Shown here one piece after another: positions 4,546 through 32,028 of a stretch of DNA of 64,000 nt. The notes under the pieces are model-generated. The model was given only the letters and a program-made list of their open reading frames with translations. It made no database searches and was not told where the DNA came from. The DNA is from Thermopolyspora flexuosa. GTDB taxonomy: Bacteria; Actinomycetota; Actinomycetes; Streptosporangiales; Streptosporangiaceae. The DNA lies in assembly GCF_006716785.1 (NCBI RefSeq), contig NZ_VFPQ01000001.1:1-64000 (forward strand). Direction: 5' to 3'. The position numbers and the translations under genes were made by a program. Numbering within the stretch: position 1 is the stretch's first letter; each line of letters starts with the position of its first letter.

Positions 4546-4615
4546 GTCTCAAGACTAAGCGACGGCCTCAGCCGGGGGCCGGAAGCGGGGAGGGCCAAAG
4601 CACCTGGTAAGAGCG

Positions 4616-4626
4616 GTTACGGTAAC
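4616..4626. promoter_or_regulatory. small palindrome in the divergent intergenic region
   Basis: GTTAC-G-GTAAC is a perfect 11-bp palindrome lying between the divergent DUF2530 and purine-permease genes. It could be a repressor half-site pair for either gene. Evidence is limited to symmetry and location. Confidence 0.25.
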
Positions 4627-4812
4627 GTGAGCGTGGTTCGGTGCTGTGCGAAGCAGCGCGGGCCGCGAACGAATTGGTTGCGATCCCGTCACCGTCCTTC
4701 GGCAGGTCTTCCCGCATGTGAAACCGGCTGTCACGCTGCGCGCGTGAGCGTCACACGTGCCGCACCTTCCCCCAAATCCCCCAGTCCCCCAAAAACACCC
4801 TCGAGTAGTTCA

Positions 4813-6243: not shown

Positions 6244-6253
6244 CGCCGCATCG

Positions 6254-6295
6254 GGCCGTCCCGGGGCACCCGCTCCGGGGCGGCCTTTCCTCTTT
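6254..6295 (+). terminator. intrinsic terminator after the purine permease
   Basis: GGCCGTCCCGG (6254-6264) pairs with CCGGGGCGGCC (6275-6285), 10 Watson-Crick pairs plus one G-U, followed by TTTCCTCTTT. It sits 10 bp after the permease stop and before the convergent MocR gene, so is a classical Rho-independent terminator. Confidence 0.8.
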
Positions 6296-6330
6296 GCCCG
6301 ATCCGGCCCGGGTACGGCCTGCCGTACCGG

Positions 6331-7824
6331 TCACCCGGCCGCCGCCTCGGCGGCCGTCTCCGCGGTGGCCGCGCGCACGGCGGCCGCGAGGCGGCGCAGG
6401 CCCTCGTCGATGCGCTCGAGCGGGATCGCGCCGTACCCGAGCACGAGCCCGGGCCGGTGCGGGCCGGGCTCGGCGTGGAACGCGGACAGCGACTCCACCC
6501 CCACCCCGAGCTGCCGGGCGCGGGCCACCGCCTCGCCGAGGTCGGCCGCCGCCCCGGGGGCCAGGTGCGCGCACAGGTGCAGCCCGGCCGCGGAGGGGAC
6601 CGGGTCGAGCAGGCCGGCGAGGTCGCGGCGGAGCACGGCGAGGATGCGCCGGTGCCGGGCCGCGTAGACGCGGGTCGCCTTGCGGATGTGCCGGGCGAGC
6701 AGCCCTTCGTCGATGAAGTCCGCCATCGCCGCCTGCTCGTGGTACTGCCCGTGCCAGTCCGCCAGCCGTTTCGCGGCGAGCAGCGCGGGCCGCAGCGAGG
6801 CCGGGGCGACGAGGAAGCCGAGCCGCAGCATCGGCAGCGTCGACTTGGAGAACGAGCCCACGTAGATCACCCGGCCGCCCCGGTCGAGGCTCTGCAGCGG
6901 CTCCAGCGGCCGGTCGGAGAACCGGAACTCGCTGTCGTAGTCGTCCTCGATCACCGCCGCGCCGTGCCGCTGCGCCCACTCCAGCAGCGCCGCCCGCCGC
7001 GCCGCCGACATCGGCGTGCCGAGCGGGAACTGGTGCGACGGCGTCACGTAGACCAGCCGCGTCCCCGGCGGGATCGCGGCCACGTCGATGCCCTCCGCGT
7101 CCACCGGCACCCCGGCCACGCGGGCGCCGAGCGAGCGGAACAGCAGCCGGGCCGGTGGATAGCCCGGCTCCTCGACCGCCACCAGGTCGCCCGGCTCGAT
7201 CAGCACCCGCCCGACGAGGTCGAGGGCCTGCTGCGCGCCCTGGGTGACGATCACGTCGTCCGCGCCCGCGCGCACCGACCGGGAGACCCCGAAGTGCCGC
7301 GCGATCGCCGCCCGCAGCCCGGCATGCCCGGCCGGGTCCGCGTACCGGCCGTCGGCGAGCGTCGCGGCCCGCAGCCTGCGGGCGACCAGCCGTCGCCACG
7401 ACTCCAGCGGGAACAGCGTCGCGTCCGGCACGCCCAGCTTGAAGTCGTACGGCAGGGCTTCCCCGGCGGCGCCGCGCGGCCACACCGGGATCGTCCGCCA
7501 CACCGGCCGCGGCGCGATGTCGCCCGGCGGGGCCTCGCGGGCCGGCGCCCCGGGCGTGCCGCCGCCGGTCCGCTGCGCGGCGGGCGGGCTGAGCGAGACG
7601 AACGTGCCCACGCCCACCCGGCCGGTGACGAACCCTTCGGCGGTGAGCCGGTCGTACGCGGCGGCGACCGTGTTGCGTGAGACTTGGAGCCGTTCGGCCA
7701 GCTCGCGGGTGGGCGGCAGCCGGTCGCCCGCGCGCAGCCGGCCGTCGAGGATCGCCTCGAGCAGCTGCCGGTAGATGCGGGCGGCGAGGTCGCCACGGCC
7801 GGTAAGGGTGACGTGCACCTCCAT
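6331..7824 (-). CDS. MocR-type transcription factor (GntR wHTH plus aminotransferase domain)
   Basis: A 497-aa fusion of a GntR winged helix (residues about 10-75; LPPTRELAERLQVSRNTVAAAYDRL) to a fold-type I aminotransferase domain (about 125-490) that binds PLP. The PLP lysine lies in VGSFSKSTLPMLRLGF, and VIVTQGAQQALDLV and DYDSEFRFS are further aminotransferase signatures. Members act as dimeric regulators rather than enzymes, often of vitamin B6 or amino-acid metabolism; PdxR is the best known. The ATG at 7824 places the HTH at the expected distance from the N-terminus; the longer frame to 7974 would run through the promoter region. The gene is divergent from an AhpD-like gene, its likeliest target, across a spacer containing repeated CCAAT/ATTGG boxes. 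Confidence 0.87.
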   Translation of the reverse strand: MEVHVTLTGRGDLAARIYRQLLEAILDGRLRAGDRLPPTRELAERLQVSRNTVAAAYDRLTAEGFVTGRVGVGTFVSLSPPAAQRTGGGTPGAPAREAPPGDIAPRPVWRTIPVWPRGAAGEALPYDFKLGVPDATLFPLESWRRLVARRLRAATLADGRYADPAGHAGLRAAIARHFGVSRSVRAGADDVIVTQGAQQALDLVGRVLIEPGDLVAVEEPGYPPARLLFRSLGARVAGVPVDAEGIDVAAIPPGTRLVYVTPSHQFPLGTPMSAARRAALLEWAQRHGAAVIEDDYDSEFRFSDRPLEPLQSLDRGGRVIYVGSFSKSTLPMLRLGFLVAPASLRPALLAAKRLADWHGQYHEQAAMADFIDEGLLARHIRKATRVYAARHRRILAVLRRDLAGLLDPVPSAAGLHLCAHLAPGAAADLGEAVARARQLGVGVESLSAFHAEPGPHRPGLVLGYGAIPLERIDEGLRRLAAAVRAATAETAAEAAAG

Positions 7825-18223: not shown

Positions 18224-18252
18224 CGCCGACCGTCCTTAGGTGCGAGAGTGCG

Positions 18253-19791
18253 ATGTCCTACGACTTACTGACCCGTGCTTGGATCCCGGTACGGGAAGGC
18301 GAGACCCGCTCGAAGATCGGCCTCCGAGAGCTATTCCTGCGTGCGCACGAGCTGACGGACATCGAGGCGTCACCCCCACCTGCCGCGTCCGGGCTGTGGC
18401 GGGCGCTGACGGTGATGGCCGCGCGCATTACCGGCCTGGACGACACGTCCCTGCCCATCGAGGAGTGGGGCGAGCTGCAGGGCGAGGTGTTGGACGCAGG
18501 GCGGTTCGATCCGGCCGCGGTGGAGAAGTACTTCGCCAAATTCGCGGGGCGCTTCGACCTGTTCGACGAGGACAGGCCGTGGCTGCAGGATCCCCGGCTC
18601 CGGGAGCAGTGCAAGACGAGCTCGGGCGTGAACAAGCTGGTCCTCTACCGTCCCGCCGGCAACAACCAGGTGTGGTTCAACCACGTGACCGCCCGGAACC
18701 CGCTCCCGGTTCCGGCCGACGAGGCCGTGTTCCACCTGCTGATTCAGCTCTATTACGGTCCGTCCGGCCAGTGCACGCCGAGGACGGTGAACGGAGTATC
18801 GGAGAGAAACACCAAGGCCGGGCCGCTGCGGAGGACGCTTTCGTTCCACCCGCTCGGCCGTACCGTGTTCGAGTCGCTCGTCGCCGGTATCCCTCCGGCA
18901 CGCGAGCTCGATACGGGAGGTGTGGATCTCGCTCCTTGGGAGGCCGACGAGCTACCGGACCCCCTGGGCGTGCCGCCCAAGCCGAGCGGCATCGCGGGTG
19001 TTCTGACCGGCCGGTTCCAGCACGCCGTGCTGCTGGAGGGTTCTCCGGACGGGGAATCGGTGACCGATGCCTGGATTACATGGGCGTGGCGGAATCGGGA
19101 CCTCCCGGCCAGGGATCCCTACCTCGTCTACCACCAGACCAAGGACGGGGAATACCTGCCGCTCTCGGCCGAGGCGCATCGGGCGCTCTGGCGGGACTTC
19201 GACTCGCTGATCCTGGAGGACGTGGGCGACGACCGTCGGCGTCGCCCCGTGGTGCTGGCAGCGGTCGAGGATCTGCGGGGCACGCTGCTGCCCGTGCTAC
19301 GTGTCCGGGCCTTCGGTGTCGACCAGGACGGCCAGACGCGGGACAAGGAGTGGGTCACAGGTGTGACCCCTGCGCTGCTGGCCTTGGCGCGGGAACCGGA
19401 AGTGGCGCGGGCGGTCAGCGAGATGCGGCAGGCGGCCGAGCGGGTCGAGGTTCACCTCCGGGGCGCGTTGCGTCAGGCCTGGATTGCGATCAACGACCCC
19501 TCCAACGGCGATGGCAAACCCCAACGCAAGGACATCTCCGAGGGGCCATGGCCTGGGAACGCGTCGTTCCGGTACTGGCCGCGCGCCGAGCGGATCTTCT
19601 GGCGGCGGGTGCGCGAGCGGGAGTTCGGCCGGGCGGTGGAGGAGTTCCTGCGGCTGGCGCTTGAGATCTATGACGAGGTGACCGACAGCGCGGGCATGCT
19701 GCCGCGGGCCAAGCGAGCCATCGAGCTTAAACGCGGACTGATCTTCAAAACTCGCAAGCCGGGTGGCAAGACCGGCCGAGGTGACGGGTGA
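18253..19791 (+). CDS. casA: Cascade large subunit Cas8e (Cse1/CasA)
   Basis: The 512-aa large subunit of the type I-E Cascade complex, which recognises the PAM and recruits Cas3. MSYDLLTRAWIPVR at the N-terminus, FDLFDEDRPWLQDP, and a QLYYGPSGQCTPRT-like loop in place of the E. coli L1 region identify the family. The length is normal for Cse1. The start at ATG 18253 gives the standard N-terminus. Its TGA overlaps the cse2 ATG by one base (TGATG), indicating translational coupling. Confidence 0.96.
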   Translation: MSYDLLTRAWIPVREGETRSKIGLRELFLRAHELTDIEASPPPAASGLWRALTVMAARITGLDDTSLPIEEWGELQGEVLDAGRFDPAAVEKYFAKFAGRFDLFDEDRPWLQDPRLREQCKTSSGVNKLVLYRPAGNNQVWFNHVTARNPLPVPADEAVFHLLIQLYYGPSGQCTPRTVNGVSERNTKAGPLRRTLSFHPLGRTVFESLVAGIPPARELDTGGVDLAPWEADELPDPLGVPPKPSGIAGVLTGRFQHAVLLEGSPDGESVTDAWITWAWRNRDLPARDPYLVYHQTKDGEYLPLSAEAHRALWRDFDSLILEDVGDDRRRRPVVLAAVEDLRGTLLPVLRVRAFGVDQDGQTRDKEWVTGVTPALLALAREPEVARAVSEMRQAAERVEVHLRGALRQAWIAINDPSNGDGKPQRKDISEGPWPGNASFRYWPRAERIFWRRVREREFGRAVEEFLRLALEIYDEVTDSAGMLPRAKRAIELKRGLIFKTRKPGGKTGRGDG

Positions 19792-20459
19792 TGGTGAATC
19801 TGAAGGTAGCGGACGCATACGTGGCCCATGTCCGCAGGCAGGTGCGGGAACCGGGACGGCGCGCGGCCCTGCGCCGAAGTCTGGGGCGGCCCGTGGAGGA
19901 CGTCGTCACTCGCCTCGCACACGCCGTGGTCGCTCCGTGGCTGCCCGCCGACCGGACCTGGCATGCGGTGGAGAGGGCCTATTACTCGGTCGCCGCGCTG
20001 ATCGCCGCGCAGCCACGTGACCGACAGAGTGCGAACACGACGGCGGAGCCGGACGAGGAGGAGAGCGTCAGCGAACCGTCGTCCGACGAGAGGGCCGGCG
20101 ACGACAGCGCTAAGGCGGCGACAAAGGCGATCCAGCGGCCAACGGTGAGCCTCGGCGGCACACTCGGCCAGGCCGTACGCGACAAGAAACTCAACGCCGA
20201 CTCGATAGAGGCCCGGCTCCACCTGCTGTGCCGGCAGGACGTCGCCGGGCTGCACCGGATGCTGCCCGGTCTGTTCCACCAGATGGCCGCCAAGGAGGTC
20301 ACCCCCGACTGGGGGCGGCTCCTGGTCGATCTGGCCCGGTGGGAGCGTGATCGCGACCACGTGACCAAGCGGTGGCTACAGGACTACTACCGGGCGATCC
20401 ACAGAGACGACGAGCACGAGCAGACCGACGACAACGACTCAGAGAGCGAGGACCGGTGA
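19791..20459 (+). CDS. casB: Cascade small subunit Cse2 (CasB) with acidic insert
   Basis: Small subunit of type I-E Cascade; it forms the belly dimer that stabilises the R-loop. The 222-aa product has Cse2 signatures ERAYYSVAALIAA and RLHLLCRQDVAGLHRMLP, and LLVDLARWERDRDHVTKRWLQDYY near the end (quoted in part). A roughly 35-residue Glu/Ser/Asp-rich stretch (about residues 76-108) separates the two helical halves and makes it longer than the 160-190 aa usual for the family. ATG 19791 overlaps the casA stop; GTG 19788 is an equivalent alternative, with GAGGTGA upstream. Confidence 0.95.
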   Translation: MVNLKVADAYVAHVRRQVREPGRRAALRRSLGRPVEDVVTRLAHAVVAPWLPADRTWHAVERAYYSVAALIAAQPRDRQSANTTAEPDEEESVSEPSSDERAGDDSAKAATKAIQRPTVSLGGTLGQAVRDKKLNADSIEARLHLLCRQDVAGLHRMLPGLFHQMAAKEVTPDWGRLLVDLARWERDRDHVTKRWLQDYYRAIHRDDEHEQTDDNDSESEDR

Positions 20460-21577
20460 CCACCCCGCGATTCTTGGACGTGCATGCCCTGCAGACCGTG
20501 CCGTTCGCGAACCTCAACCGCGACGATCTGGGCTCGCCGAAGAGCCTGGTGTACGGCGGGGCCACCCGGACCCGGGTGTCGAGCCAGTGCTGGAAGCGCG
20601 CCATTCGGCTGGAAGTCGAGCGGGCCATCGGGGACCCGGCGGTCAGGACGCGCCGGGTACCGGCCGAGATCGCGGCGCGGCTGCGGGCCCGCGGCTGGTC
20701 CGAGGAAGCGGCGCAGGCCGCGGGGAATCAGGTCGTGCTGTCGGCCAACAAGAAGGAAGGGCTGAAGCTGGAGGACAACGGCGGCACATCGGTGCTGCTG
20801 TACCTGCCCAAGGCGGCGCTCGACGCCCTGGCCGATCTGGCCGAGGAGCATCGGGAGGCGATCGAGACGACCATCGGGCAGAAGAAGCCGAAGCCGGTGC
20901 TGCCGGTGGACAGGGTCGGTGAGCTGCTGTCGGAACGCAACGGCGTCATCAACCTGTTCGGGCGGATGCTGGCCGAGCTGCCCGGGGCGGGGGTGGACGG
21001 TGCGGTACAGGTCGCGCACGCGTTCACCACGCACGAGGTGGCGCCGGAGATCGACTTCTTCACCGCGGTGGATGACTGCCTGCCCGAGGACGCTGTCGGC
21101 AGCGGCCACATGAACAGCGCGGAGTTCAGCGCCGGCGTGTTCTATCGGTACGCCAGCGTGGACCTTGCGGGGCTGCTGGCCAACCTGGGCGGGGACGCTT
21201 GCATGGCCAAGGAGCTGTCCTCCGAGTTCTTGCGTGCGTTCATCTCCTCGCTGCCGACCGGCAAGCAGACGGCCACGGCCGCCAACACACTGCCCGATCT
21301 GGTGCACGTGGTGGTGCGTACGGACCGGCCGATCTCGTACGCGGCCGCGTTCGAAGCGCCGGTCCGCCCGGAGAACGGCATCGCCGAGCCGTCCCGGGCC
21401 CAGCTCGCCCGGCATGCCGCGCGGCTGGAGCGGCTGTGGGGCACGAAGGGCGTCGTGTATCGCGGCTACGCGTGCATCGACGAGAAGCCGCTGAGCGGGC
21501 TGGGGGACCCGGTGGAGTCCTTCGACGAGCTGGTCGAGGGGGCCGTGACGGCCGCGTACGGAGGTTCCGCGCAGTGA
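20456..21577 (+). CDS. casC: Cascade backbone subunit Cas7e (CasC/Cse4)
   Basis: The 373-aa RAMP protein that forms the helical backbone along the crRNA. FLDVHALQTVPFANLNRDD, TRTRVSSQCWKRAIR and DFFTAVDDCLPEDAVGSGHMNSAEFS (in part) are hallmark Cas7e blocks. GTG 20456 overlaps the cse2 stop by 4 bp (GTGA). Length and motifs are normal. Confidence 0.96.
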   Translation: MTTPRFLDVHALQTVPFANLNRDDLGSPKSLVYGGATRTRVSSQCWKRAIRLEVERAIGDPAVRTRRVPAEIAARLRARGWSEEAAQAAGNQVVLSANKKEGLKLEDNGGTSVLLYLPKAALDALADLAEEHREAIETTIGQKKPKPVLPVDRVGELLSERNGVINLFGRMLAELPGAGVDGAVQVAHAFTTHEVAPEIDFFTAVDDCLPEDAVGSGHMNSAEFSAGVFYRYASVDLAGLLANLGGDACMAKELSSEFLRAFISSLPTGKQTATAANTLPDLVHVVVRTDRPISYAAAFEAPVRPENGIAEPSRAQLARHAARLERLWGTKGVVYRGYACIDEKPLSGLGDPVESFDELVEGAVTAAYGGSAQ

Positions 21578-22314
21578 GCGGCCTGGTGCTGCGGCTGGCC
21601 GGGCCGCTGCAGTCCTGGGGCGAACACAGCGTGTTCGCCCAGCGCGACAGCCTGCGCTTCCCGACCCGATCGGGGCTCATCGGCCTGCTGGCCTGCGCCG
21701 AAGGGCTGCCGCGTGGCGCGCCTCTGGCCCGTTACGATGCGCTGCGGTTCACCGTGCGGATCGACCGTCCCGGCGTGCGGATGGTGGACTTCCACACCAT
21801 CGGAGGCGGCATGCCGAAGGGCGTACCCCGGCCCGACGGCAACCAGCGCCCGGGTGGGCCCAACGCTATGGTGACTCGGCGCCAGTATCTGGCGGACGCC
21901 GTGTTCACCGTGGCCGTGGAGGGCCCGACGGATCGGCTGGCCGAGATCGCCGAGGCGCTGCGCAACCCCCGCTGGCACCCGTACCTGGGGCGACGCTCCT
22001 GCCCGCCGGACCAACCGCTGCTGCTGCGGGCGGACGTGGCCGATCCCGTGGGCGAGCTGCACACCCGGGTGCCGGTTGCGCGGCGACTGCGTGAGCAGGA
22101 ACCGCCTGAGGCGGAGTTCGTGGTCGAGGATCACCCGGACGCCGCCGGCGCGGTCACCGAAGTTGCCGACGTCCCGCTGAGCTTCAACCGGTACGACCGG
22201 CGGTATCGCACGCGGACGGTGAGCATCGTCAGCCGATCGCTGCCGAAGGAGCTGTTCGTGACCGGCGAGCGGTTCTGGGAGCGGCTCGTTGCCTACATGG
22301 AGGAGGAGCGGTGA
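21574..22314 (+). CDS. casD: Cascade subunit Cas5e (CasD)
   Basis: A 246-aa RAMP that caps the 5' handle of the crRNA. The N-terminal LVLRLAGPLQSWGEHSVF is diagnostic, followed by PTRSGLIGLLACAEG. GTG 21574 overlaps the cas7 stop by 4 bp (GTGA). Normal length. Confidence 0.96.
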   Translation: MSGLVLRLAGPLQSWGEHSVFAQRDSLRFPTRSGLIGLLACAEGLPRGAPLARYDALRFTVRIDRPGVRMVDFHTIGGGMPKGVPRPDGNQRPGGPNAMVTRRQYLADAVFTVAVEGPTDRLAEIAEALRNPRWHPYLGRRSCPPDQPLLLRADVADPVGELHTRVPVARRLREQEPPEAEFVVEDHPDAAGAVTEVADVPLSFNRYDRRYRTRTVSIVSRSLPKELFVTGERFWERLVAYMEEER

Positions 22315-22937
22315 CGGCCTGGCTGATGCGCATCCTGCCCGACCTGCGCCGCCGGGACGTCAACGACGACCTGGCCGACCTCGACCGGCTGCACAAGCGG
22401 TTGATGTCGCTCGTCCCCGACGGCCTGGGGGAGAACGCCAGGGCCAAGGCCGGGGTGCTGTTCCGCCTCGAGGAGACCCGGCAAGGCATGCAGCTGCTGG
22501 TGCAAAGCACGGTGAAGCCCGACATCGGGCGGCTGCCGGACGGTTATGGGGAGATCGCGGTACGCGAACTGGGAGCGCTGCTGGATCGGCTGCGGCCCGG
22601 TGCGCGGGTGCATTACCGCATCGCCGCCAATCCCTCCAAGCGGCTCGGCAAGAGCGCGGGCAAGGACGCCGGCAAGGTGAAGCCGCTGCGGGGCGCCGCG
22701 GCCGAGGAGTGGTGGGTGACCAAGGCGGCATCGCACGGCCTGGCCGTCGCTACGGTGACCTCGCAGCCACGCCCGGACATCCGCGCCAAGGGCACCGCCG
22801 TGCGACACGCCGTGGTCCGGTTCGACGGAATCGGCGTGGTCACCGACCCCGACGCGCTGCGCGCAGCCGTACTGACCGGGATCGGCCGTGGCAAGTCCTA
22901 CGGCTGCGGGCTGCTGAGCCTGGCCTGGGCGCGATGA
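22311..22937 (+). CDS. casE: crRNA endoribonuclease Cas6e (CasE)
   Basis: A 208-aa two-ferredoxin-fold RNase that cuts the repeat hairpin and stays bound to the 3' handle. The C-terminal glycine-rich loop GIGRGKSYGCGLLSLA is intact and a candidate catalytic histidine lies in LDRLHKRL (His28). It presumably recognises the CCCCACGCACGTGGGG hairpin of both arrays. GTG 22311 overlaps the cas5 stop by 4 bp. Confidence 0.96.
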   Translation: MTAWLMRILPDLRRRDVNDDLADLDRLHKRLMSLVPDGLGENARAKAGVLFRLEETRQGMQLLVQSTVKPDIGRLPDGYGEIAVRELGALLDRLRPGARVHYRIAANPSKRLGKSAGKDAGKVKPLRGAAAEEWWVTKAASHGLAVATVTSQPRPDIRAKGTAVRHAVVRFDGIGVVTDPDALRAAVLTGIGRGKSYGCGLLSLAWAR

Positions 22938-23932
22938 CCGGAACCGCGCGGCGTAGACTCGCCGCCCCCACCCTGGCCATGCTGCCCAGGATCGCCGATT
23001 CGCTGTCGTTCCTGTACGCCGAGGCCGTGCGCATCGTGCAGGACGACACGGGAGTCTGCGCCCAGGTCGAGTCGCCCAAGGGGGTGGACCGGGTGAACCT
23101 GCCGACCGCCGCACTGGCCTGCATCCTGCTCGGCCCCGGCACCTCGATCACCCAGCCCGCGATGGCCACGATCGCCCGGCACGGCACCTCGCTGGTATGC
23201 GTCGGCGCCGGTGGGGTGCGCAGCTACGCGGGGATCATGCCGGCGTCGCTCACCACGCACTGGCTGGAAAAGCAGGTGCGCGCCTGGGCCGACGACCAAA
23301 CCCGCCTCCAGGTGGCGATCCGGATGTACGAGATGCGGTTCGGCGTCGGCACCGCACCCGCGGGCGCCACCCTCGCCAAGCTTCGCGGCCTGGAGGGCCA
23401 ACGAATCAAGGCCCTCTACCGGATGCTGGCGACCAAGCACGGCATCAAACGTTTCAAACGCAACTACGACCCGGACTCGTGGGACAGCCAGGACTCGATC
23501 AACAAGGCCATGTCGGGTGCCAACTCCTGCATGTACGGCGTCGTTCACGCTGCCGTGCTGGCGCTGGGCTGCTCCCCTGCACTGGGCTTCATCCACAACG
23601 GCACACAGATGTCCTTCGTCTACGACGTCGCCGACCTGTACAAGGCCCGGGTCACCATCCCACTCGCGTTCTCGTTGCACGCATCCGCCGATCCGGAGCG
23701 TGAGGCTCGGCGGCGGCTCCGGGAGGAGTTCCGCGCGCTGAAGTTACTGCCGCAGATCGTGGCCGACATCCAGACGCTGCTCGACCCCGAGAGTACTCCC
23801 GCAACGGCGGGCGACCGCAGCGTCGATGTGGTCCACCTCTGGGATCCGCATCTCGGCCCGCTTCCCGCCGGTGTGAACTATGGCGTTGATTCCTTTGACG
23901 CATACGACTCGTTCGACCTGCAGGTGGAGTGA
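22934..23932 (+). CDS. cas1: adaptation integrase Cas1e
   Basis: A 332-aa metal-dependent integrase that, with Cas2, inserts new spacers at the leader end. The catalytic residues are present: Glu154 (RGLEGQRIKALY), His221 (GFIHNGTQMSF) and Asp231/Asp234 (VYDVADLYK). ATG 22934 overlaps the cas6e stop by 4 bp (ATGA). Intact adaptation genes fit the length of the arrays and their uniform repeats. Confidence 0.97.
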   Translation: MTGTARRRLAAPTLAMLPRIADSLSFLYAEAVRIVQDDTGVCAQVESPKGVDRVNLPTAALACILLGPGTSITQPAMATIARHGTSLVCVGAGGVRSYAGIMPASLTTHWLEKQVRAWADDQTRLQVAIRMYEMRFGVGTAPAGATLAKLRGLEGQRIKALYRMLATKHGIKRFKRNYDPDSWDSQDSINKAMSGANSCMYGVVHAAVLALGCSPALGFIHNGTQMSFVYDVADLYKARVTIPLAFSLHASADPEREARRRLREEFRALKLLPQIVADIQTLLDPESTPATAGDRSVDVVHLWDPHLGPLPAGVNYGVDSFDAYDSFDLQVE

Positions 23933-23935
23933 GCG

Positions 23936-24268
23936 ATGGCATCGATGGTCGTGATCTCCACTACGGCGGTCCCAGATCACGTAAACGGAGCGTTATCACG
24001 CTGGCTAATCGAGCCGTGTCCCGGGCTTTTCGTGGGCACGGTATCCGCCCGTGTGCGCGACGAACTCTGGTCGGCGGTCAGTGCGAGCGTGGGCGACGGC
24101 ATGGCCGTCCTCATCCACCCGGCCGACAACGAGCAGGGTTTCGCGCTACGCACGTCGGGTCAACGTCGTCGACACGTAGTCGACTTCGACGGCCTCCAGT
24201 TGATCAAGTTCGCCGCCGAGACAACTGACACCTCATCTGATCAAGAAAAACCTCAAGTGAAAATGTGA
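23936..24268 (+). CDS. cas2: adaptation protein Cas2e with a C-terminal tail encoded by leader DNA
   Basis: A 110-aa Cas2e ferredoxin-like protein, the partner of Cas1. MVVISTTAVPDHVNGALSRW and FVGTVSARVRDELW (in part) are typical. The conserved part ends near DFDGLQLIKF; the last 17 or so residues (AETTDTSSDQEKPQVKM) are polar and look unlike the family, and their codons lie in the AT-rich DNA immediately upstream of array 2. The stop is only 18 bp from the first repeat. Confidence 0.95.
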   Translation: MASMVVISTTAVPDHVNGALSRWLIEPCPGLFVGTVSARVRDELWSAVSASVGDGMAVLIHPADNEQGFALRTSGQRRRHVVDFDGLQLIKFAAETTDTSSDQEKPQVKM

Positions 24269-24286
24269 AACCGCAGTTCAGGAAGT
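24200..24286 (+). promoter_or_regulatory. array 2 leader, largely inside the cas2 coding sequence
   Basis: Only 18 bp separate the cas2 stop from the first repeat of array 2, so any leader of ordinary length must overlap the 3' end of cas2. The stretch is AT-rich (GATCAAGAAAAACC, GTGAAAATGTGAAACC). Bases adjoining the repeat (GCAGTTCAGGAAGT) match those next to the first repeat of array 1 at 10 of 14 positions, which suggests a shared adaptation signal. Confidence 0.55.
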
Positions 24287-26383
24287 GTCCTCCCCACGCA
24301 CGTGGGGGTGAGCCGACGGTGACGTCGAGGAAACGGCCAGCGTTTTCGTCCTCCCCACGCACGTGGGGGTGAGCCGCCGGCCCATTCGATCTGTCCATCC
24401 CGGTCGATGTCCTCCCCACGCACGTGGGGGTGAGCCGCACTATGTTCCAGCATCACGGCTCTGACTGACGTCCTCCCCACGCACGTGGGGGTGAGCCGCC
24501 CAAGAAGGCCCAGCAGTACTCCCCTGAGGAGTCCTCCCCACGCACGTGGGGGTGAGCCGGCCCGCGCGGCGCGGGCCGCGAGCAAGGGAGGGTCCTCCCC
24601 ACGCACGTGGGGGTGAGCCGTAGATGCGGACACGGTGGTCGGTGCCGCGGCAGTCCTCCCCACGCACGTGGGGGTGAGCCGGCCGTGGGCCTGGCCGCCT
24701 CGTCGAGGCCTGCGTCCTCCCCACGCACGTGGGGGTGAGCCTGCACTCTGGACCGCGCCGATCACTTGATTCGTGTCCTCCCCACGCACGTGGGGGTGAG
24801 CCGGTAGCCAATCGCATCGGCGGAGAGACTACGTAGTCCTCCCCACGCACGTGGGGGTGAGCCGGGTGACGCACCCACCCCCGAGAGCGTCACCCCGTCC
24901 TCCCCACGCACGTGGGGGTGAGCCGCGCGTCATCGAGCTCGTGATCAAGGGTGACGCGTCCTCCCCACGCACGTGGGGGTGAGCCGCCGTCCTCTTGTCG
25001 GCACCGGTGACCTGGCCGGTCCTCCCCACGCACGTGGGGGTGAGCCGGTGGCGGCACCCTTAGGCGGGTAGAGGTTGATGTCCTCCCCACGCACGTGGGG
25101 GTGAGCCGTATGAGGGCGACCACAGATGGTTCCGGTGTGTGTCCTCCCCACGCACGTGGGGGTGAGCCGCCGCGCACAACGCCGGCGCTCAACGTCCGGT
25201 AGTCCTCCCCACGCACGTGGGGGTGAGCCTCGACCACATCCGCTACCTACAGCAGGTCGGCCGTCCTCCCCACGCACGTGGGGGTGAGCCGGTGTTGTGC
25301 AGCACCTGGATCAGCGGCACACCGTCCTCCCCACGCACGTGGGGGTGAGCCGGACCCGCTGGTCGCGACGCTGGCGGCGACGGAGTCCTCCCCACGCACG
25401 TGGGGGTGAGCCGCGTCCGGTGCCCTTGCAGTTGCCGCACTTGACGTCCTCCCCACGCACGTGGGGGTGAGCCGCGGACGGCGTCCATCGTGCGATCCTT
25501 TCTGTAGTCCTCCCCACGCACGTGGGGGTGAGCCGAGGACCTACCACTGCCCGAACCCCGACTGCCGGTCCTCCCCACGCACGTGGGGGTGAGCCTTCAA
25601 CGGGCAGCGCGTCAACACGCGCGTCATCGTCCTCCCCACGCACGTGGGGGTGAGCCGCGTACGGAGCCGGGCTGCTCCTGATCCGGGAGGTCCTCCCCAC
25701 GCACGTGGGGGTGAGCCGATGGAGCGGCGCAACACCGGCCCGGCACGGCTGTCCTCCCCACGCACGTGGGGGTGAGCCGGCCGGCCTGCGCCCCACCGAC
25801 GTCGTCGCCCAGTCCTCCCCACGCACGTGGGGGTGAGCCGGCCCGGGACATCGGCCCCGGGCCTTCGTGCTGGTCCTCCCCACGCACGTGGGGGTGAGCC
25901 GGTGGCTCATCGGAGAGACCTTTCTTGGTCAGGGTCCTCCCCACGCACGTGGGGGTGAGCCGCCGCCCTCACCCGCCCAAACCCGAGAGAGAGGGTCCTC
26001 CCCACGCACGTGGGGGTGAGCCGACCAGGTGGGTGGCGTCGCCCACTCGGCTGATGTCCTCCCCACGCACGTGGGGGTGAGCCGCCTTCGCATGAGCTGA
26101 GCCAGCTCATCGTGACGTCCTCCCCACGCACGTGGGGGTGAGCCGTCGGTCAGACCGAGCAGCTCGCGGACGCGGGGGTCCTCCCCACGCACGTGGGGGT
26201 GAGCCGCACATCGACGCCGTCGCGCAGGCCGCCCGGGAGTCCTCCCCACGCACGTGGGGGTGAGCCGACGCGCCCGAGCGCGGCCTGGAGGCCGCTACGG
26301 TCCTCCCCACGCACGTGGGGGTGAGCCGTCGATTCCGCAGACCAGCGGTTTGCTGGGGCTCCCAATACACGTGGGGGTGAGCC
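24287..26383 (+). CRISPR. CRISPR array 2 (type I-E), 34 intact repeats and one mutated repeat, read rightward
   Basis: Thirty-four intact copies of the same 28-bp repeat as array 1, on the plus strand, with starts every 61 bp from 24287 to 26300 and 33-nt spacers, followed by a copy with several mismatches at 26356-26383 after a shortened 28-nt spacer. The base after the repeat is G in 31 of 34 cases. The leader end is at cas2 and the right end decays, so the array grows at its cas-proximal end like array 1. Spacer 25657-25689 (number 23 from the leader) is identical to spacer 20 of array 1. Confidence 0.98.
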
Positions 26384-26801: not shown

Positions 26802-26838
26802 CCGCCGCCCGGCGCCCCGCGACGGCGCCGGGCGGCGG
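26802..26838 (-). terminator. strong hairpin ending the HerA operon
   Basis: A perfect 14-bp inverted repeat, CCGCCGCCCGGCGC (26802-26815) and GCGCCGGGCGGCGG (26825-26838), with a 9-nt loop, begins 6 bp past the stop of the leftward ATPase gene (26845). No U tract. It also isolates the operon from transcription out of CRISPR array 2. Confidence 0.65.
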
Positions 26839-26844
26839 TGGGCG

Positions 26845-29800
26845 TCAGGGGCGCTTGGCCCGGTCGATGACCTCCTCGGCGGTGAGGGGGGACGGGGGGT
26901 GGTAGGTGAGGCACAGCGGGGTGCGGATCTTGACCATGGGGCGGCCCTCGGTCGCGACGTAGAACTCGCCGCCCTTGAGGCGGGCGATGTCGGAGACGGT
27001 GCCGCCTTTGGCGCGGGCCATCTCCTGGGCGGCGGTGATCTGCACCGGGGCGTTCAGCCGGCCGTAGAACTGGGTCGTGGCGTTGCCGGGGATCTGGTTG
27101 TGCAGGCCCTTCGGGGCCTGGGTGGCGAACACCAGGCCGAGGCCGTACTTGCGGGCCTGGGAGGCGAGGGCGAGGGTGCTCCGCGTGCAGGGGGTCATCG
27201 CGCCGGAGGGGGCGAACGTCTGGGCCTCGTCCATCACCAGCAGGCCGCCGAGCGGGCGGTCGCTGGGGTGCTTCTTCACCCAGGCGAACAGCGACATCTG
27301 GAGCTGGTTGACGAAGCTCTGCCGCTGCTCGTCCTGGGCCAGCCCGATGAAGTTGATCACCGAGACCCTGGCCCGCTTGCCGGGCGGCGGGGTGAGCAGG
27401 ACGCCCGGGTCCATGGGGGTGCCCTCGCCGTCGAACAGCGGGTCGTTCACCCTGGCGGCCTTGAGGGTCTGCGCGATGTCCGACGCGATCTTCTCCGCGC
27501 CGTCGAGGGTGCTGACCCCGTCCGGCAGGGAGTCGAGCAGGTCGATGAGCCCCTGCAGGCCGGCGCCGCCTCGGCGGGCGTAGAACGTGATCGCCTCGCG
27601 CAGTACGGCCTGGCCGTGCAGGGCCTTGGGAGAGGCCCCGGTGAGTTTCGCCCGGGGGACGAGCGACTCGACGGCGACGTCCACCGCCTCCCGGAACTCG
27701 TCCGGGTCGTCGCGGACGCTCGAGAAGTCGGGCAGCGGCTGGAACGTGAGCGGCCGCCCGGCGGTACGCCCCGGGGTCCAGACCGTCACGTCGACGTCGG
27801 CGAGGTACTCGGCCGCCTTCGCCTCATCGCCCGGCCCCCACGCCTCCGGCGGGGCCGGCCACGGGTCGCCGAGCCGTGCCAGGTCGTTGTTGGGGTCGAG
27901 CACGATCGCGGACACGCCGCGCAGCGCGCACTCCTCCACGAGGCGGCGGATGAGCACGGTCTTGCCCGAGCCCGAGCCGGCGAAGATCACCACGTGCTTG
28001 CGCAGCGCCTCCAGCGGCACGGTGACCTCGGCATCGGTGGCCATGACCCGGCCCACGGTCACCGGCGCCGCGGCCGGGTGCGTCGGCCCACCGGTTGCCC
28101 CGCCCGTGGCGCTCTCGTCGCGGTCCGGCAGGGGGACGTCGTCCTTGGACCGGGCGGGGACGTGGTCGTCGCGGGGTTCCGTACCGCCGGCGGGGGCGGT
28201 GCCCATGCCGCTCGGCCGCCAGTCGTCTCCCGGGACGAAACCGCCCGCGCCCCGGGCCAGGGGTGAGATTCCACCACCGTTCGACGGGCCGGGCTTGGCG
28301 TCGGCGAGCAGATCGCCGACCTTGGCGAGCGCGCTCTGGCCGTTGGGGCCGAGGCCACCGGGCGGCTTGCCGGGCGAGGGCGGCGGCAGCTGGTTGCCGG
28401 GGACGGGCGAGTCTGGATCGCTCCAGGAGGCGAGCGCCTCGCGGAGGAAGCTCACCTGCTCGGCGGGCCTGCGGGCGGCGAGCCACTGGCCCAGGTGCGG
28501 CGGGTTCTCGTTGATCAGCGTGCGGAGCGCGGTGAGGATCCGCAGGTCGTCCTCGGTGAAGCGGAGCACGCGGCCGCCGGCGTCGAGGAACCTGGCGACG
28601 GCCTCCTGCGTCTTCGGCCCGGTCGGCCAGTCGGCGTTGCGGAGGATGAAGAGGCGGCGCTTCGGCACGTCCGCGGCGAGGCCGGCCTCGACCACCGCCT
28701 TGCGCAGGCGGGTGATGACCGCCCGGGCGTTCGTCGCGGAGATCGCGCGGAACGCCCAGTGGAACTGGTCCTCGGTGGACTCGTCGAGGGCACGGCGCAG
28801 CCGGGCGTGCAGGGCGGGGTTCGCGCTCGGCTCGGAGTCCTGGCTGAAGCTCGCGCCCGCCTCGCCGAGGCCCGTCACCCACGCCTCCAGACCGGCCGCG
28901 AGCAGCGACGGCATGACCTGGTCCTCGGTCGCGGGCTTGGTGGCCATGCTCACGTCCGCCGACGCGCGCAGCGACTCGAACCGGTCGTCGAGGGCGCGCA
29001 GCCTCTGCTCCTCCGGGTCGGGCTGGATCGGCCCCGGCTCGGGAATCCGCTCCTCGAGGCTCTCCATCTCCCGGATCTCGCCGTTGAGCAGGCACGAGCG
29101 GATGTGCTCGTCGATCCGGATGAGCAGGTCGCGCGGGGTCCGGTTCACGGCCTCGGCGAACACGCTCGGCTTCACCGGCCAGGTCGGGTACGGCGGGGTG
29201 TAGTCGAGTGCCTCGTACCGGGCGGCGAACCGCTTCTCCACCAGCAGCCGGGCGGTCTCGGGGTCGGTCAGCACGCCGAGCTGGGTGGCGAGCTGGAACC
29301 GGTCCTGCACGGTGTCGGTGGCGTGCGTGGCGATCAGCTCCCAGGTGTCGGGCAGGCAGGAGACGATCGTCAACGTACGGCGGGTGTGCTCGCGCAGCGA
29401 CATCAGGCCGTGGGCGACGTGTTCGATGAGCAGCACCCCTCGCCAGTCCTGATCCGCGTGCATGGACCTGATGCCGCACTGGGCGACGAGCATGTCGATC
29501 TGGTCGACCGCGATCACCGACGGCCCGGTGAGGGCGAGCAGCCGGGAGATGTCCCGGACGATCTCCTGCGGTGACTTGTTCACCTGCCGGATGCCCCAGC
29601 TCGCCCACTCGCCCGGGGTCTCCTCGATGCCGCTGGTGAGGTACGCCTCGCCGATGTCCTGGGCGGTGAAGTCCGCGGAGGCGCGGAGGACGAGGGCGCG
29701 CAGGGTGTCGCGGCACTGCCGCATCACCAGGTTGTCGATGCGGGCGACGGACTGGACGAACCTGTCCAGCGTCTCCCGGGTGATCGGCGTCTTGCCGCAG

Positions 29801-30225
29801 ATCGCCGCCCAGTCGTCGGACGGCAGCTCGGCGAGGACCGAGAGCCGGGTGAGGAAGGTCTCCAGCTGCGATTTGCCGTCGTCGCCGATCCGGCAGAGCC
29901 CGTCGAGCATCGCCACGACGACGCTCTCCCAGAAGCTCCGCGCGTCGAGCAGGCCGACGAGGAAGAAGTACCCGTCCCGCAGCTGCACCTGCTCGCGCGC
30001 CCAGCCGAGTAAGTGCGTCTTTCCGGTGCCGCGTCGCCCCTTCACCACGACGCCGATGGGGCTCGCGTCGCTGCTGTCCCGTGCCTCTTCGATGCCGCGG
30101 AGCACGAGGTCGGCGGTCCGCTGGTGCAGCGTGTCGACGTGGTACGGCGAGCGTCGCCACACGTGGTCGGGCGCCTGCGTGTAGTCGAGCCGCAGGCCGG
30201 CGAGGATCGATCTCGGGTCTGCCAT
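26845..30225 (-). CDS. fusion of a STAND/AAA-like NTPase and a HerA-like ATPase
   Basis: A 1126-aa protein with two P-loop NTPases. The N-terminal module has Walker A GRRGTGKT (63-70) and Walker B SVIAVDQID (236-244), like AAA_16/STAND ATPases. Residues about 520-590 form a separate alpha/beta unit (KRRLFILRNADWP, GGRVLRFTEDDLRILTAL). A Pro/Gly-rich linker (about 605-720) leads to a HerA/DUF87-type ATPase with Walker A GSGSGKT (750-756), LDPNNDLARLGD, Walker B GLLVMDEAQTFAP (994-1006) and ATQAPKGLHNQIPGN. HerA proteins are hexameric DNA translocases that partner with nucleases. ATG 30225 overlaps the upstream stop by one base (TGATG). It is last in a nuclease-wHTH-ATPase operon beside the CRISPR locus, so a role in phage or plasmid defence is my inference. 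Confidence 0.88.
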   Translation of the reverse strand: MADPRSILAGLRLDYTQAPDHVWRRSPYHVDTLHQRTADLVLRGIEEARDSSDASPIGVVVKGRRGTGKTHLLGWAREQVQLRDGYFFLVGLLDARSFWESVVVAMLDGLCRIGDDGKSQLETFLTRLSVLAELPSDDWAAICGKTPITRETLDRFVQSVARIDNLVMRQCRDTLRALVLRASADFTAQDIGEAYLTSGIEETPGEWASWGIRQVNKSPQEIVRDISRLLALTGPSVIAVDQIDMLVAQCGIRSMHADQDWRGVLLIEHVAHGLMSLREHTRRTLTIVSCLPDTWELIATHATDTVQDRFQLATQLGVLTDPETARLLVEKRFAARYEALDYTPPYPTWPVKPSVFAEAVNRTPRDLLIRIDEHIRSCLLNGEIREMESLEERIPEPGPIQPDPEEQRLRALDDRFESLRASADVSMATKPATEDQVMPSLLAAGLEAWVTGLGEAGASFSQDSEPSANPALHARLRRALDESTEDQFHWAFRAISATNARAVITRLRKAVVEAGLAADVPKRRLFILRNADWPTGPKTQEAVARFLDAGGRVLRFTEDDLRILTALRTLINENPPHLGQWLAARRPAEQVSFLREALASWSDPDSPVPGNQLPPPSPGKPPGGLGPNGQSALAKVGDLLADAKPGPSNGGGISPLARGAGGFVPGDDWRPSGMGTAPAGGTEPRDDHVPARSKDDVPLPDRDESATGGATGGPTHPAAAPVTVGRVMATDAEVTVPLEALRKHVVIFAGSGSGKTVLIRRLVEECALRGVSAIVLDPNNDLARLGDPWPAPPEAWGPGDEAKAAEYLADVDVTVWTPGRTAGRPLTFQPLPDFSSVRDDPDEFREAVDVAVESLVPRAKLTGASPKALHGQAVLREAITFYARRGGAGLQGLIDLLDSLPDGVSTLDGAEKIASDIAQTLKAARVNDPLFDGEGTPMDPGVLLTPPPGKRARVSVINFIGLAQDEQRQSFVNQLQMSLFAWVKKHPSDRPLGGLLVMDEAQTFAPSGAMTPCTRSTLALASQARKYGLGLVFATQAPKGLHNQIPGNATTQFYGRLNAPVQITAAQEMARAKGGTVSDIARLKGGEFYVATEGRPMVKIRTPLCLTYHPPSPLTAEEVIDRAKRP

Positions 30226-30950
30226 CACATCACCTCGATGGAGATCAGATGGCTGTCCTGGCCGCCGATGCGCACGGCCGCGGCGCGCTCCTCCGGGGTG
30301 AGCGCCTTCTGGTTGGACTGCGGGTCCACGAACACGTCCGGCTGCAGGTTCATCCTGATCAGCGCGGCGTCGACGTCCTCGCGCGGCAGGTCGGCGAGGA
30401 GCTTGCGGAGCCGGACGAGCGGCACGTGGCGGCCCGGGCTCTCCGCGAGTTCGAAGTAGGCGGCGCGGATGCGCTTCTCCACCTCCTCAGGCGACGGCGG
30501 CATCGCGGCCGCGGGCTCCTGGGAGGCCGCCGGGGCGGTGGAGCTCGGGGCGGGCGCCGCGGTCGCGTCGTCCTCGGGGGCGGGCGTGTCGGCGACCGTG
30601 TCGGGCTGGAACACCTCGGCCAGGCTCTGACCGGTGCGGTTCAGGTAGCGCCGCAGGCCGCGCAGCAGGGCGAGGCAGGTGGCGGCGGCCGCACCCGTCC
30701 CCAGCCGGAGGTCGTCCCGCTCGATCTCGGCCATCGCGCGCGCCCAGCCGCGGTCCGTGAGCGTGTGCGCAAGGGCGCGCCCCTGCTTCCGGCTGTCCAC
30801 CAGCCCCAGCTTGTTGAGCCGCCTCCGCGGCCTGCCGGTGAGCGTGTAGCCGTACCGCTCAGCGAGATCGACGTTGGAGACCTCGTCGGCCTCCGCCATC
30901 AGGATGAAGAGCGCCCGGAGCTCTTCTGCGGACAGTTCCGTCTCGGACAT
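30225..30950 (-). CDS. winged-helix protein of the HerA operon
   Basis: A 241-aa protein with no family name I can assign. Residues about 5-70 look like a MarR-type winged helix (ELRALFILMAEADEVSNVDL, LNKLGLVDSRKQGRALAHTLTDRGW in part). A central helical part and an Ala/Pro-rich linker follow. The C-terminal part, about 160-241, reads like a second winged helix ending ALTPEERAAAVRIGGQDSHL. It may be a DNA-binding or adaptor subunit linking nuclease and ATPase, or the operon's regulator. ATG 30950 starts one base after the nuclease stop, and its own stop overlaps the ATPase ATG, so all three genes are translationally linked. Confidence 0.8.
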   Translation of the reverse strand: MSETELSAEELRALFILMAEADEVSNVDLAERYGYTLTGRPRRRLNKLGLVDSRKQGRALAHTLTDRGWARAMAEIERDDLRLGTGAAAATCLALLRGLRRYLNRTGQSLAEVFQPDTVADTPAPEDDATAAPAPSSTAPAASQEPAAAMPPSPEEVEKRIRAAYFELAESPGRHVPLVRLRKLLADLPREDVDAALIRMNLQPDVFVDPQSNQKALTPEERAAAVRIGGQDSHLISIEVM

Positions 30951-30951
30951 G

Positions 30952-32028
30952 TCATCCTTCCAACGTTCCACGATGGCGAGCACGCCGGCGCTTCTCGATG
31001 AAGCGCCCGATCTGGTGGACCACCGCCTGGACGTCGTCGAGCACCTGGTCGTCGGTGAAGCGCAGGACCGCGTAGCCGTCCAGCTGGAGCTGGACGTCGC
31101 GGCGTCGGTCGGCGCGGAACTTGAGCGGGCGGCGGTGGTCGTCGCCGTCGACCTCGACCACGCAGCGCTCGGCGCGCCAGATGAGGTCGACGCGGATCGG
31201 CGGGGTGAGGGGATCGGACTGGTAGGTCTGGTTCCAGGCCCGGCCGGTCGCCCAGGGGCACTTGGCGAGCGCGGTCTCGAGCAGCTGTTCCGCCCGGCTG
31301 GCCGGGTGCGGTTTCCCGGCCACGGCCGGGAAGGTGACGGTGGGTTCGTCGTCGACGGGCGGCCAGGGGGCGGCCCCGCCGGTGTCGTGCGCTCCGCCGT
31401 ACGGGAGGAGCACGGGTACCGTCTCGAGCCGGTCGACGGCGGTCAGCGGGGCGCCGGTGAGCCAGACGCCGAAGCCGCCCGCGTGCGCGAGCCATTCGGC
31501 GCCGGCGACGAGTAACTCCTCCTCGGACGGGGTGAGCCCGTCGGGGACCTCGAGGAGGATCGCGGTGTGCGTGCGGCCGTAGCTCGCCGCGAGCACCCGG
31601 GCGAGCCCGGCGGCGCGCACCTCGCGGGGGAACCTGCGTAACGATCGGCTCGTGGCCGCGTCCCCGTCGTCGCAGAGCGCGGTCTCGGCCAGCTCGGCGA
31701 GGAAGGGGCCGAAGTGCGGGCTGCGCGCGGCGAGGCGTAACGCGAGCATCCGTACGGCTCGCGCGGCCGGTCCGCCGCGGCGTGCCGGGCGGGTCAGGCC
31801 CGCGGCGTCGGGCAGCCAGGCCGGGAACAGGTCGACGGCCGCCCGTTCCAGCGTGTCGAGGGCCACGCCGACCATCTCGGGCAGCGAGCGCGGATGGCCG
31901 AGGGAGTACGCGATGATCGCGGGCGCGTCCTCGGGCAGCACCTCCAGGTCGGCGGCGAGGGCGGCCCGATCGGCTCCGTCGAGGCACACGACACGGCCCG
32001 TCGGCAGCTGCGCCCACCACCGTGTCAT
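30952..32028 (-). CDS. DUF559 (Vsr-like PD-(D/E)XK) nuclease of the HerA operon
   Basis: A 358-aa protein. The C-terminal domain (about 243-345) is a DUF559/Vsr-like nuclease: SRAEQLLETAL, then RVDLIW (Asp281), VVEVDGDDHR (Glu292, Asp294, His298), and RADRRRDVQLQLDGYAVLRF. This matches the D...ExDG..H...DRRRD..L...G pattern of the family, so the active site looks intact. The N-terminal 240 residues are Leu/Ala-rich alpha/beta sequence without a recognised domain and may provide the target or partner interface. ATG 32028 is preceded by GGCGAGGG. It is the promoter-proximal gene of the three-gene operon; a dyad lies about 120 bp upstream. Confidence 0.87.
   Translation of the reverse strand: MTRWWAQLPTGRVVCLDGADRAALAADLEVLPEDAPAIIAYSLGHPRSLPEMVGVALDTLERAAVDLFPAWLPDAAGLTRPARRGGPAARAVRMLALRLAARSPHFGPFLAELAETALCDDGDAATSRSLRRFPREVRAAGLARVLAASYGRTHTAILLEVPDGLTPSEEELLVAGAEWLAHAGGFGVWLTGAPLTAVDRLETVPVLLPYGGAHDTGGAAPWPPVDDEPTVTFPAVAGKPHPASRAEQLLETALAKCPWATGRAWNQTYQSDPLTPPIRVDLIWRAERCVVEVDGDDHRRPLKFRADRRRDVQLQLDGYAVLRFTDDQVLDDVQAVVHQIGRFIEKRRRARHRGTLEG

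What the first reader, a model, noticed from the sequence alone, without database searches (positions are those of the whole stretch)
26845..32028. Three-gene DUF559 nuclease / winged-helix / STAND-HerA operon beside the CRISPR locus
The sequence shows a promoter-proximal DUF559 nuclease with its catalytic pattern (Asp281, Glu292, Asp294, His298), a protein with one or two winged helices, and a giant ATPase with both a STAND/AAA P-loop and a HerA P-loop. Gene spacing is +1 bp and a 1-bp overlap, so the three are obligately co-translated, and a strong hairpin closes the unit. HerA-family ATPases are known to pair with nucleases or other effectors in defence (Sir2-HerA, DUF4297-HerA, Dpt). I know of no named system with DUF559 plus a STAND-HerA fusion plus this wHTH protein. 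The location directly after the CRISPR trailer supports a defence island.
Basis: partly seen in the sequence, partly recalled or inferred. Interest (0 to 1): 0.88.

Follow-up and report, generated by a model that had tools for sequence, protein, structure and literature searches.

The report
Mobile nuclease–translocase cassette with swappable nuclease
Three tightly linked bacterial genes encode a DNA-cutting enzyme, a likely DNA-binding adaptor and a double-motor protein that travel between bacteria as one unit, probably to destroy invading DNA; relatives have replaced the cutting enzyme with an unrelated one, so the motor half looks like a reusable defence chassis.

Summary
The order is kept in 51 examined loci, from Streptosporangiaceae to Mycobacteriales, Acidobacteriota and Alphaproteobacteria. 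The three proteins diverge in step with each other but not with rpoB. One congener has a clean empty site.

(1) The AAA+ domain is ORC/Cdc6-like rather than STAND; its Walker-B glutamate is an invariant glutamine (76/76 loci), while the HerA motor keeps intact motifs. (2) In one clade of 20 loci the DUF559 nuclease is replaced by an unrelated DUF4365 nuclease plus partner, which match PADLOC's defence-candidate pair PDC-M02A/B. (3) The nuclease carries an N-terminal domain resembling a degenerate P-loop NTPase.

CRISPR adjacency looks incidental: no array lies near the trio in 24 other loci. Most likely this is a stand-alone, modification-independent anti-invader nuclease-translocase, a new variant of the predicted 'HerA/FtsK capture' systems (PMC10853773), in an arrangement for which I found no name. 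Defence itself is untested.

The parts
30952..32028 (-). DUF559 nuclease gene, 358 aa (ATG 32028)
   Evidence: DUF559 E 9e-11; D281/E292/D294/H298 invariant in 51/51; homologous order in 51 loci
31399..32028 (-). nuclease residues 1-210: alpha/beta domain resembling a degenerate P-loop/AAA+ NTPase without Walker motifs
   Evidence: AlphaFold2 pLDDT mostly 85-95; RdrA Z 7.8, TnsC 6.7, CED-4 6.7, ORC 6.6: suggestive only
30982..31317 (-). nuclease residues 238-349: PD-(D/E)XK catalytic domain (DUF559/Vsr-like)
   Evidence: NGO0050 3hrl Z 13.3, I-Bth0305I Z 12.0, Vsr Z 10.6; hmmsearch 3hrl E 3e-11
30225..30950 (-). predicted double winged-helix protein, 241 aa
   Evidence: conserved in 20 aligned members, two conserved helix/wing-like blocks joined by a variable linker; fold not confirmed; weak DUF6293_C winged-helix hit in a relative
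26845..30225 (-). AAA+-HerA fusion, 1126 aa
29041..30225 (-). residues 1-395: ORC/Cdc6-like AAA+ with Walker A G63-T70, Walker B D241-Q242-x-D244, R309 (candidate arginine finger)
   Evidence: best fold matches Cdc6 Z 14.5, TnsC 13.9, ORC2 13.9; K69, D241, Q242, D244 and R309 invariant in 76/76
28432..29013 (-). residues 405-598: middle alpha/beta domain, no fold match; possible counterpart of the inactive REase of the published class
   Evidence: AlphaFold2 pLDDT mostly 83-97 over residues 411-598; not tested alone
28066..28428 (-). residues ~600-720: low-complexity hypervariable linker
   Evidence: alignment columns 701-900; DNA identity falls to 0.64-0.65 between congeners at 95% background
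26848..28062 (-). residues 722-1126: HerA/FtsK motor core with GSGSGKT, MDEAQ, R1025 and sensor FATQ
   Evidence: mean column identity 76% over 19 members; DUF87; mad8 75 bits
32058..32066 (-). promoter-like element GATAACCTC, 38 nt before the nuclease ATG
   Evidence: TATAACCTC-like (7/9 or better) at -38 to -57 in 13 of 16 loci versus 5% in shuffles; only background frequency elsewhere in the genomes
26802..26838 (-). 15-bp hairpin after the HerA stop codon
   Evidence: -44 kcal/mol, z -1.1, no T-run
24286..26310 (.). CRISPR array next to the cassette (context only, not part of the system)

Best explanation
It is a self-contained, horizontally mobile anti-invader system. Predicted mechanism: the ORC/Cdc6-like AAA+ domain, helped by the winged-helix protein, binds ATP and assembles on invading DNA as a stable clamp or loader; its Walker-B glutamine suggests it binds ATP with little hydrolysis. 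It loads the fused HerA motor, which pumps the DNA. The DUF559 nuclease docks on the assembly through its pseudo-NTPase domain and cuts DNA only when assembled. With no conserved modification gene, self/non-self must be read from DNA state (ends, topology, replication or transfer) or from an invader-encoded trigger. Shown here: gene unit, domain identities by sequence or predicted fold, invariant catalytic residues, mobility and empty site, joint divergence, effector exchange. Inferred: complex formation, loader role, DNA pumping, nuclease activation, and defence itself.
For: Trio order kept in Actinomycetota, Acidobacteriota and Alphaproteobacteria. The proteins' pairwise distances correlate with each other (rho 0.80-0.88, p 0.002 or less) but not significantly with rpoB (rho 0.14-0.27, p 0.05-0.17); a tree constraint taken from rpoB is rejected, p-AU 5e-6. 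Clean empty site between the same two flanking genes in one Sphaerisporangium-group genome, occupied in eight congeners. Between close congeners, trio dS is 0.16-0.48 against 0.09-0.10 in flanks, concentrated in the nuclease N-terminus, wh/AAA+ and linker, not in the HerA core. A single-origin swap of the nuclease for DUF4365 plus partner, which are PADLOC PDC-M02A (E 2e-70) and PDC-M02B (E 5e-140). Invariant catalytic residues in the HerA motor and the nuclease, and invariant ATP-binding residues in the AAA+ domain.
Against: No defence assay exists. Neighbourhoods are mostly not defence islands. In some genera the AAA+-HerA protein is near-universal (10/11 and 5/5 genomes), which is unusual for an accessory defence gene. 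dN/dS is 0.2-0.3, i.e. purifying. No trace in phage or viral-contig collections. The wh protein's fold is unconfirmed.
Confidence: 0.62

Rival explanations
1. Abortive-infection device: the complex is a promiscuous nuclease held inactive until a phage trigger, then destroys host and phage DNA, like DUF4297-HerA.
For: DUF4297-HerA is a promiscuous dsDNA nuclease acting by abortive infection (PMC11291478). No modification gene protects the host here. The exchangeable nuclease module is typical of toxic effectors.
Against: The ORC/Cdc6 domain and wh protein suggest a DNA-loading step that DUF4297-HerA lacks; no data on toxicity.
Confidence: 0.4
2. Housekeeping DNA-repair or end-resection machine, analogous to archaeal HerA-NurA, or a chromosome-segregation helper.
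For: HerA plus nuclease; near-universal in two genera, at a conserved locus in one of them.
Against: 105 of 299 genomes and 27 of 68 genera in the family, about 1 in 296 phylum-wide, empty site, incongruence with rpoB, replaced nuclease.
Confidence: 0.1
3. Part of a transposon: a TnsC-like AAA+ with an endonuclease that mobilises the cassette itself.
For: TnsC and MuB are among the best fold matches of the AAA+ domain; the cassette moves.
Against: No conserved transposase or integrase gene in the cassette; a HerA motor has no role in Tn7-like transposition; the nuclease is exchanged for an unrelated one.
Confidence: 0.05
4. Conjugation or plasmid interference: HerA engages DNA during transfer or segregation and the nuclease destroys plasmids or ICEs rather than phages.
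For: Proposed for HerA/FtsK capture systems (PMC10853773); the HerA core also matches conjugative coupling proteins weakly.
Against: Not tested; overlaps with the main explanation in mechanism.
Confidence: 0.25

Closest known systems
HerA/FtsK capture systems, ORC/Cdc6 class (Nucleic Acids Res. 2024, PMC10853773; computational prediction)
   Same: ORC/Cdc6 AAA+, active REase, HerA/FtsK and wHTH combined in a mobile operon; HerA core has Gln sensor-1 and an arginine just upstream
   Different: The paper does not mention DUF559; here AAA+ and HerA are fused with a hypervariable linker, the nuclease has a pseudo-NTPase domain, the AAA+ has a fixed Walker-B Gln, and one clade uses the PDC-M02 pair. 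The paper's example loci could not be opened, so exact overlap is unknown.
DUF4297-HerA and Sir2-HerA
   Same: HerA-family ATPase paired with a separate effector gene
   Different: Two genes, HAS-barrel HerA, no AAA+ loader, no wh protein, different effectors
DndFGH / Dpt
   Same: Three genes combining a P-loop protein, a multi-wHTH protein and a HerA/FtsK-nuclease protein
   Different: Domain order differs; no NCBIfam Dnd model matches; PADLOC DndH only at E 0.024 in one relative
MADS (mad8)
   Same: Best PADLOC match of the HerA core (75 bits)
   Different: Only the HerA core matches; no companion mad genes except generic-kinase hits to mad6 among neighbours
PADLOC candidate PDC-M02 (A+B)
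   Same: Supplies the effector position in 20 related loci
   Different: Absent from the window; in Streptomycetaceae-like genomes the pair sits beside a gene I recognise as thrS with no HerA

Membership tests
HerA/FtsK capture, ORC/Cdc6 class | ORC/Cdc6-family AAA+ ATPase | tested here: met
   Cdc6 Z 14.5 over 245 residues, ORC2 13.9, TnsC 13.9
HerA/FtsK capture, ORC/Cdc6 class | HerA/FtsK domain with Gln sensor-1 and arginine just upstream of strand 4 | tested here: met
   FATQ and R1025 invariant in 19
HerA/FtsK capture, ORC/Cdc6 class | active REase | tested here: met
   PD-(D/E)XK fold Z 13.3; catalytic residues invariant 51/51; activity not assayed. That it is one of the paper's two REase families could not be checked
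HerA/FtsK capture, ORC/Cdc6 class | wHTH component | tested here: inconclusive
   sequence pattern only; Pfam silent for 20 members, weak hit in one relative
HerA/FtsK capture, ORC/Cdc6 class | inactive REase inserted between AAA+ core and C-terminal wHTH | tested here: inconclusive
   alpha/beta domain at 405-598, not matched to a REase; fold list dominated by the AAA+ part
HerA/FtsK capture, ORC/Cdc6 class | mobile gene neighbourhood | tested here: met
   empty site, rpoB incongruence
DUF4297-HerA / Sir2-HerA | two-gene system with DUF4297 or Sir2 effector | tested here: not met
   effector is DUF559 or DUF4365; a third gene (wh) is present in all of the loci tabulated
DUF4297-HerA / Sir2-HerA | HerA with N-terminal HAS barrel | tested here: inconclusive
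   no HAS-barrel hit at E up to 1; the HerA half was not modelled
DndFGH | matches to DndF, DndG and DndH models | tested here: not met
   none in NCBIfam or PADLOC at E up to 1 for the window proteins
MADS | eight-gene mad1-8 operon | tested here: not met
   only the HerA core resembles mad8; three-gene unit
PDC-M02 | PDC-M02A and PDC-M02B genes | tested here: not met
   absent from the window trio; present in the sister clade
any defence system | protects a host from phage or plasmid | not testable with these tools
   needs an experiment

The most novel reading that the evidence does not exclude
A defence chassis in which an ATP-locked ORC/Cdc6-like loader (Walker-B glutamate permanently replaced by glutamine) is fused to the HerA pump it loads and accepts interchangeable nuclease cassettes, so that foreign DNA is recognised by loading or topology rather than by base modification: a loader-translocase-nuclease logic that I know of in no demonstrated immune system.
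Probability: 0.33. Interest if true: 0.82.

Novelty: new variant of a known kind. Interest (0 to 1): 0.64.

Why it matters
HerA-linked systems are a growing class of anti-phage machines whose activation is poorly understood. This family supplies natural experiments: a constant AAA+-HerA plus adaptor with two unrelated nuclease modules, an invariant Walker-B substitution that predicts a division of labour between two motors in one chain, and an exact empty site for isogenic tests. It links a published computational prediction (HerA/FtsK capture) and an uncharacterised PADLOC candidate pair (PDC-M02) to one testable architecture.

Tried and rejected
Defence-island support: 132 neighbours in 16 loci scanned against PADLOC and Pfam; the 25 most frequent PADLOC families shown are generic kinases. 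CRISPR association: none in 24 other loci. Methylobacterium and Acidobacteriota neighbours: no PADLOC hits; Tsukamurella has a BrxHI/DpdF-like helicase next to the trio. Calmodulin hits of the wh profile in the PDB are compositional and rejected. Phage records and viral contigs: no relatives. Profile-profile comparison of the two effector sets and of the pseudo-NTPase with the AAA+ domain: no similarity, so the pseudo-NTPase reading rests on fold comparison alone (Z 6-8, within the range the tool warns may be a common arrangement). Middle domain 405-598: not identified. One search with 400 genomes failed and was repeated with 300. Supplementary tables of PMC10853773 could not be opened. First rpoB extraction picked wrong frames and was redone.
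Full report
Observation. The three genes lie on the minus strand: nuclease 32028-30952, second gene 30950-30225, large ATPase 30225-26845. Junctions are +1 bp and a 1-bp overlap; relatives are mostly within -11 to +5 bp. DUF559 (E 9e-11), DUF87/HerA (E 8.5e-10) and an N-terminal AAA domain (AAA_16, E 4e-5, below its curated cut-off) are found by Pfam. The second protein is not recognised in any of 20 members. No PADLOC model matches the nuclease, the second protein has only a marginal CARF3 hit (E 0.017), and the HerA core matches mad8 best (75 bits). NCBIfam gives only sub-threshold hits, of which the relevant ones are HerA-type and DUF559.

Conservation of the unit. In a sample of 100 relatives, every genome with a full-length nuclease also has the winged-helix candidate and AAA+-HerA genes next to it in the same order. 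The same trio occurs in three Acidobacteriota contigs, in Tsukamurella, where it sits with VapBC and a helicase inside the ribosomal-protein gene cluster between rplN and rpsQ, and on a Methylobacterium aquaticum megaplasmid. In Streptosporangiaceae, 105 of 299 genomes and 27 of 68 genera carry the AAA+ protein. Across the phylum the nuclease is rare: one further full-length hit among 296 genomes, and that locus shows the start of the same trio.

Domains. The DUF559 part models as a PD-(D/E)XK nuclease close to NGO0050 (Z 13.3), I-Bth0305I (12.0) and Vsr (10.6). D281, E292, D294 and H298 are invariant in all 51 DUF559 loci. Residues 1-210 model as an alpha/beta domain aligning to AAA+/P-loop proteins (RdrA 7.8, TnsC 6.7, CED-4 6.7, ORC 6.6) but without Walker motifs; this is suggestive only. 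The N-terminal module of the large protein is an ORC/Cdc6-like AAA+ (Cdc6 Z 14.5, TnsC 13.9, ORC2 13.9). Its Walker A Lys, Walker B Asp and R309 are invariant, and the residue after the Walker-B Asp, normally Glu, is Gln in all 76 loci from three phyla. By established AAA+ knowledge this predicts ATP binding with impaired hydrolysis; that is inference. The HerA core (722-1126) is the most conserved part (mean column identity 76%) and has an intact Walker A, MDEAQ, the Gln sensor and an arginine just before it. An alpha/beta domain (405-598) and a hypervariable linker separate the two motors.

Mobility and turnover. Among ten Streptosporangiaceae genomes the pairwise identities of the three proteins correlate with each other (rho 0.80-0.88, p 0.002 or less) and not significantly with rpoB (rho 0.14-0.27, p 0.05-0.17). 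Grouping G032 with G058, as rpoB does, is rejected for the trio (p-AU 5e-6). In the genus of G032 (which includes Sphaerisporangium corydalis and S. fuscum by identical loci), eight genomes carry a DUF559 trio at one site. In G032 the two flanking genes are adjacent, about 150 bp apart, an empty site. Between two close members of that genus, flanking genes have dS 0.09-0.10, the nuclease and wh genes 0.22-0.23, the AAA+ half 0.48 and the HerA core 0.16. DNA identity is 93-98% in most flank windows, 0.79-0.87 in the AAA+ domain, 0.64-0.65 in the linker and 0.94-0.99 in most of the HerA core. High synonymous divergence at dN/dS of 0.2-0.3 points to imported or recombined alleles rather than simple relaxation. 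A promoter-like element (consensus CCTATAxCCTCxGC) precedes the nuclease at -38 to -57 in 13 of 16 loci, against 5% in shuffles, and occurs at background frequency elsewhere in those genomes, so it belongs to the cassette. The wh gene's distances within that genus do not follow those of the nuclease or the flanks, which may mean separate exchange of that gene or short-alignment noise.

Effector exchange. In 20 of 76 AAA+-HerA loci the DUF559 gene is replaced by a DUF4365 nuclease (E 4.6e-10) and a ~400-aa partner, which match PADLOC's candidate defence pair PDC-M02A (2e-70) and PDC-M02B (5e-140). The two effector sets share no detectable similarity. On the AAA+ tree the DUF4365 loci fall in one clade (support 95), and DUF559 is present in all the most distant branches, so one swap away from DUF559 is the simplest history. 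The tree is a quick one and two rows have long branches. Five loci have other arrangements: one has an HTH-P-loop-repeat protein in the nuclease position, four have no recognised nuclease. In at least five of six Streptomycetaceae-like genomes examined the DUF4365/PDC-M02 genes occur without AAA+-HerA, beside a gene I recognise as thrS. The wh + AAA+-HerA pair is therefore the constant chassis and the nuclease the exchangeable part.

Context. The window's cassette abuts a complete type I-E CRISPR-Cas locus, but none of 24 other loci has a CRISPR array nearby. The 132 neighbours in 16 loci show no defence enrichment beyond generic kinase hits among the families listed.

Mechanism. Best reading: AAA+ and the winged-helix protein form an ATP-dependent loader or clamp on invader DNA, HerA translocates, and the nuclease cuts on assembly. 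HerA complexes that activate a nuclease on assembly are established for DUF4297-HerA, which acts by abortive infection (PMC11291478), so an abortive mode is a serious rival. No modification gene is conserved, so a classical restriction-modification logic is unlikely.

Comparison and novelty. A 2024 analysis predicted mobile 'HerA/FtsK capture' operons combining ORC/Cdc6 AAA+, inactive and active REases, HerA/FtsK and wHTH (PMC10853773); a 2026 paper adds a BREX-related capture system (PMC12839542). The present trio meets the tested features of that class; two features remain inconclusive. DUF559 is not mentioned in either paper. I therefore file it as a new variant of a known, so far only predicted, kind, and not as a new category.

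Noticed in passing
L111 and 19 further loci (L119-L124, L127-L139): Sister clade in which the nuclease position is taken by a DUF4365 nuclease plus PDC-M02B protein.
   Followed up: yes
L118 (reverse-complement coordinates 4409-6583): A ~725-aa protein with an HTH-like N-terminus, a P-loop (GASSTGKT) and repeats sits directly before the winged-helix gene in place of the nuclease.
   Followed up: partly
L125, L126: Winged-helix + AAA+-HerA without a nuclease gene, preceded by a gene that looks like a Y-family DNA polymerase (DinB).
   Followed up: no
L157-L162: In Streptomycetaceae-like genomes the PDC-M02A/B pair lies directly upstream of a gene that looks like thrS, without HerA; a fixed position for a candidate defence pair.
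   Followed up: partly
L048:11925-21988: Tsukamurella tyrosinosolvens carries the trio, VapBC and a BrxHI/DpdF-like helicase inserted between ribosomal protein genes rplN and rpsQ on a 224-kb replicon listed as a plasmid.
   Followed up: partly
G000:C1:4454-4457 kb and 4357-4361 kb: The window's own genome has two full-length rpoB open frames (1168 aa each); G013 and G032 also have two.
   Followed up: no
window:12093-15274 and 24286-26310: Two CRISPR arrays of the same repeat family, in opposite orientation, flank one type I-E cas operon (15494-24268).
   Followed up: partly
L037:9536-13152: The AAA+-HerA gene is split into two overlapping frames near residue 800: a frameshift or a sequencing error.
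   Followed up: no
L049 (Methylobacterium megaplasmid): The most divergent full trio found, in Alphaproteobacteria, with the same gene order; its record carries no gene annotation there.
   Followed up: yes
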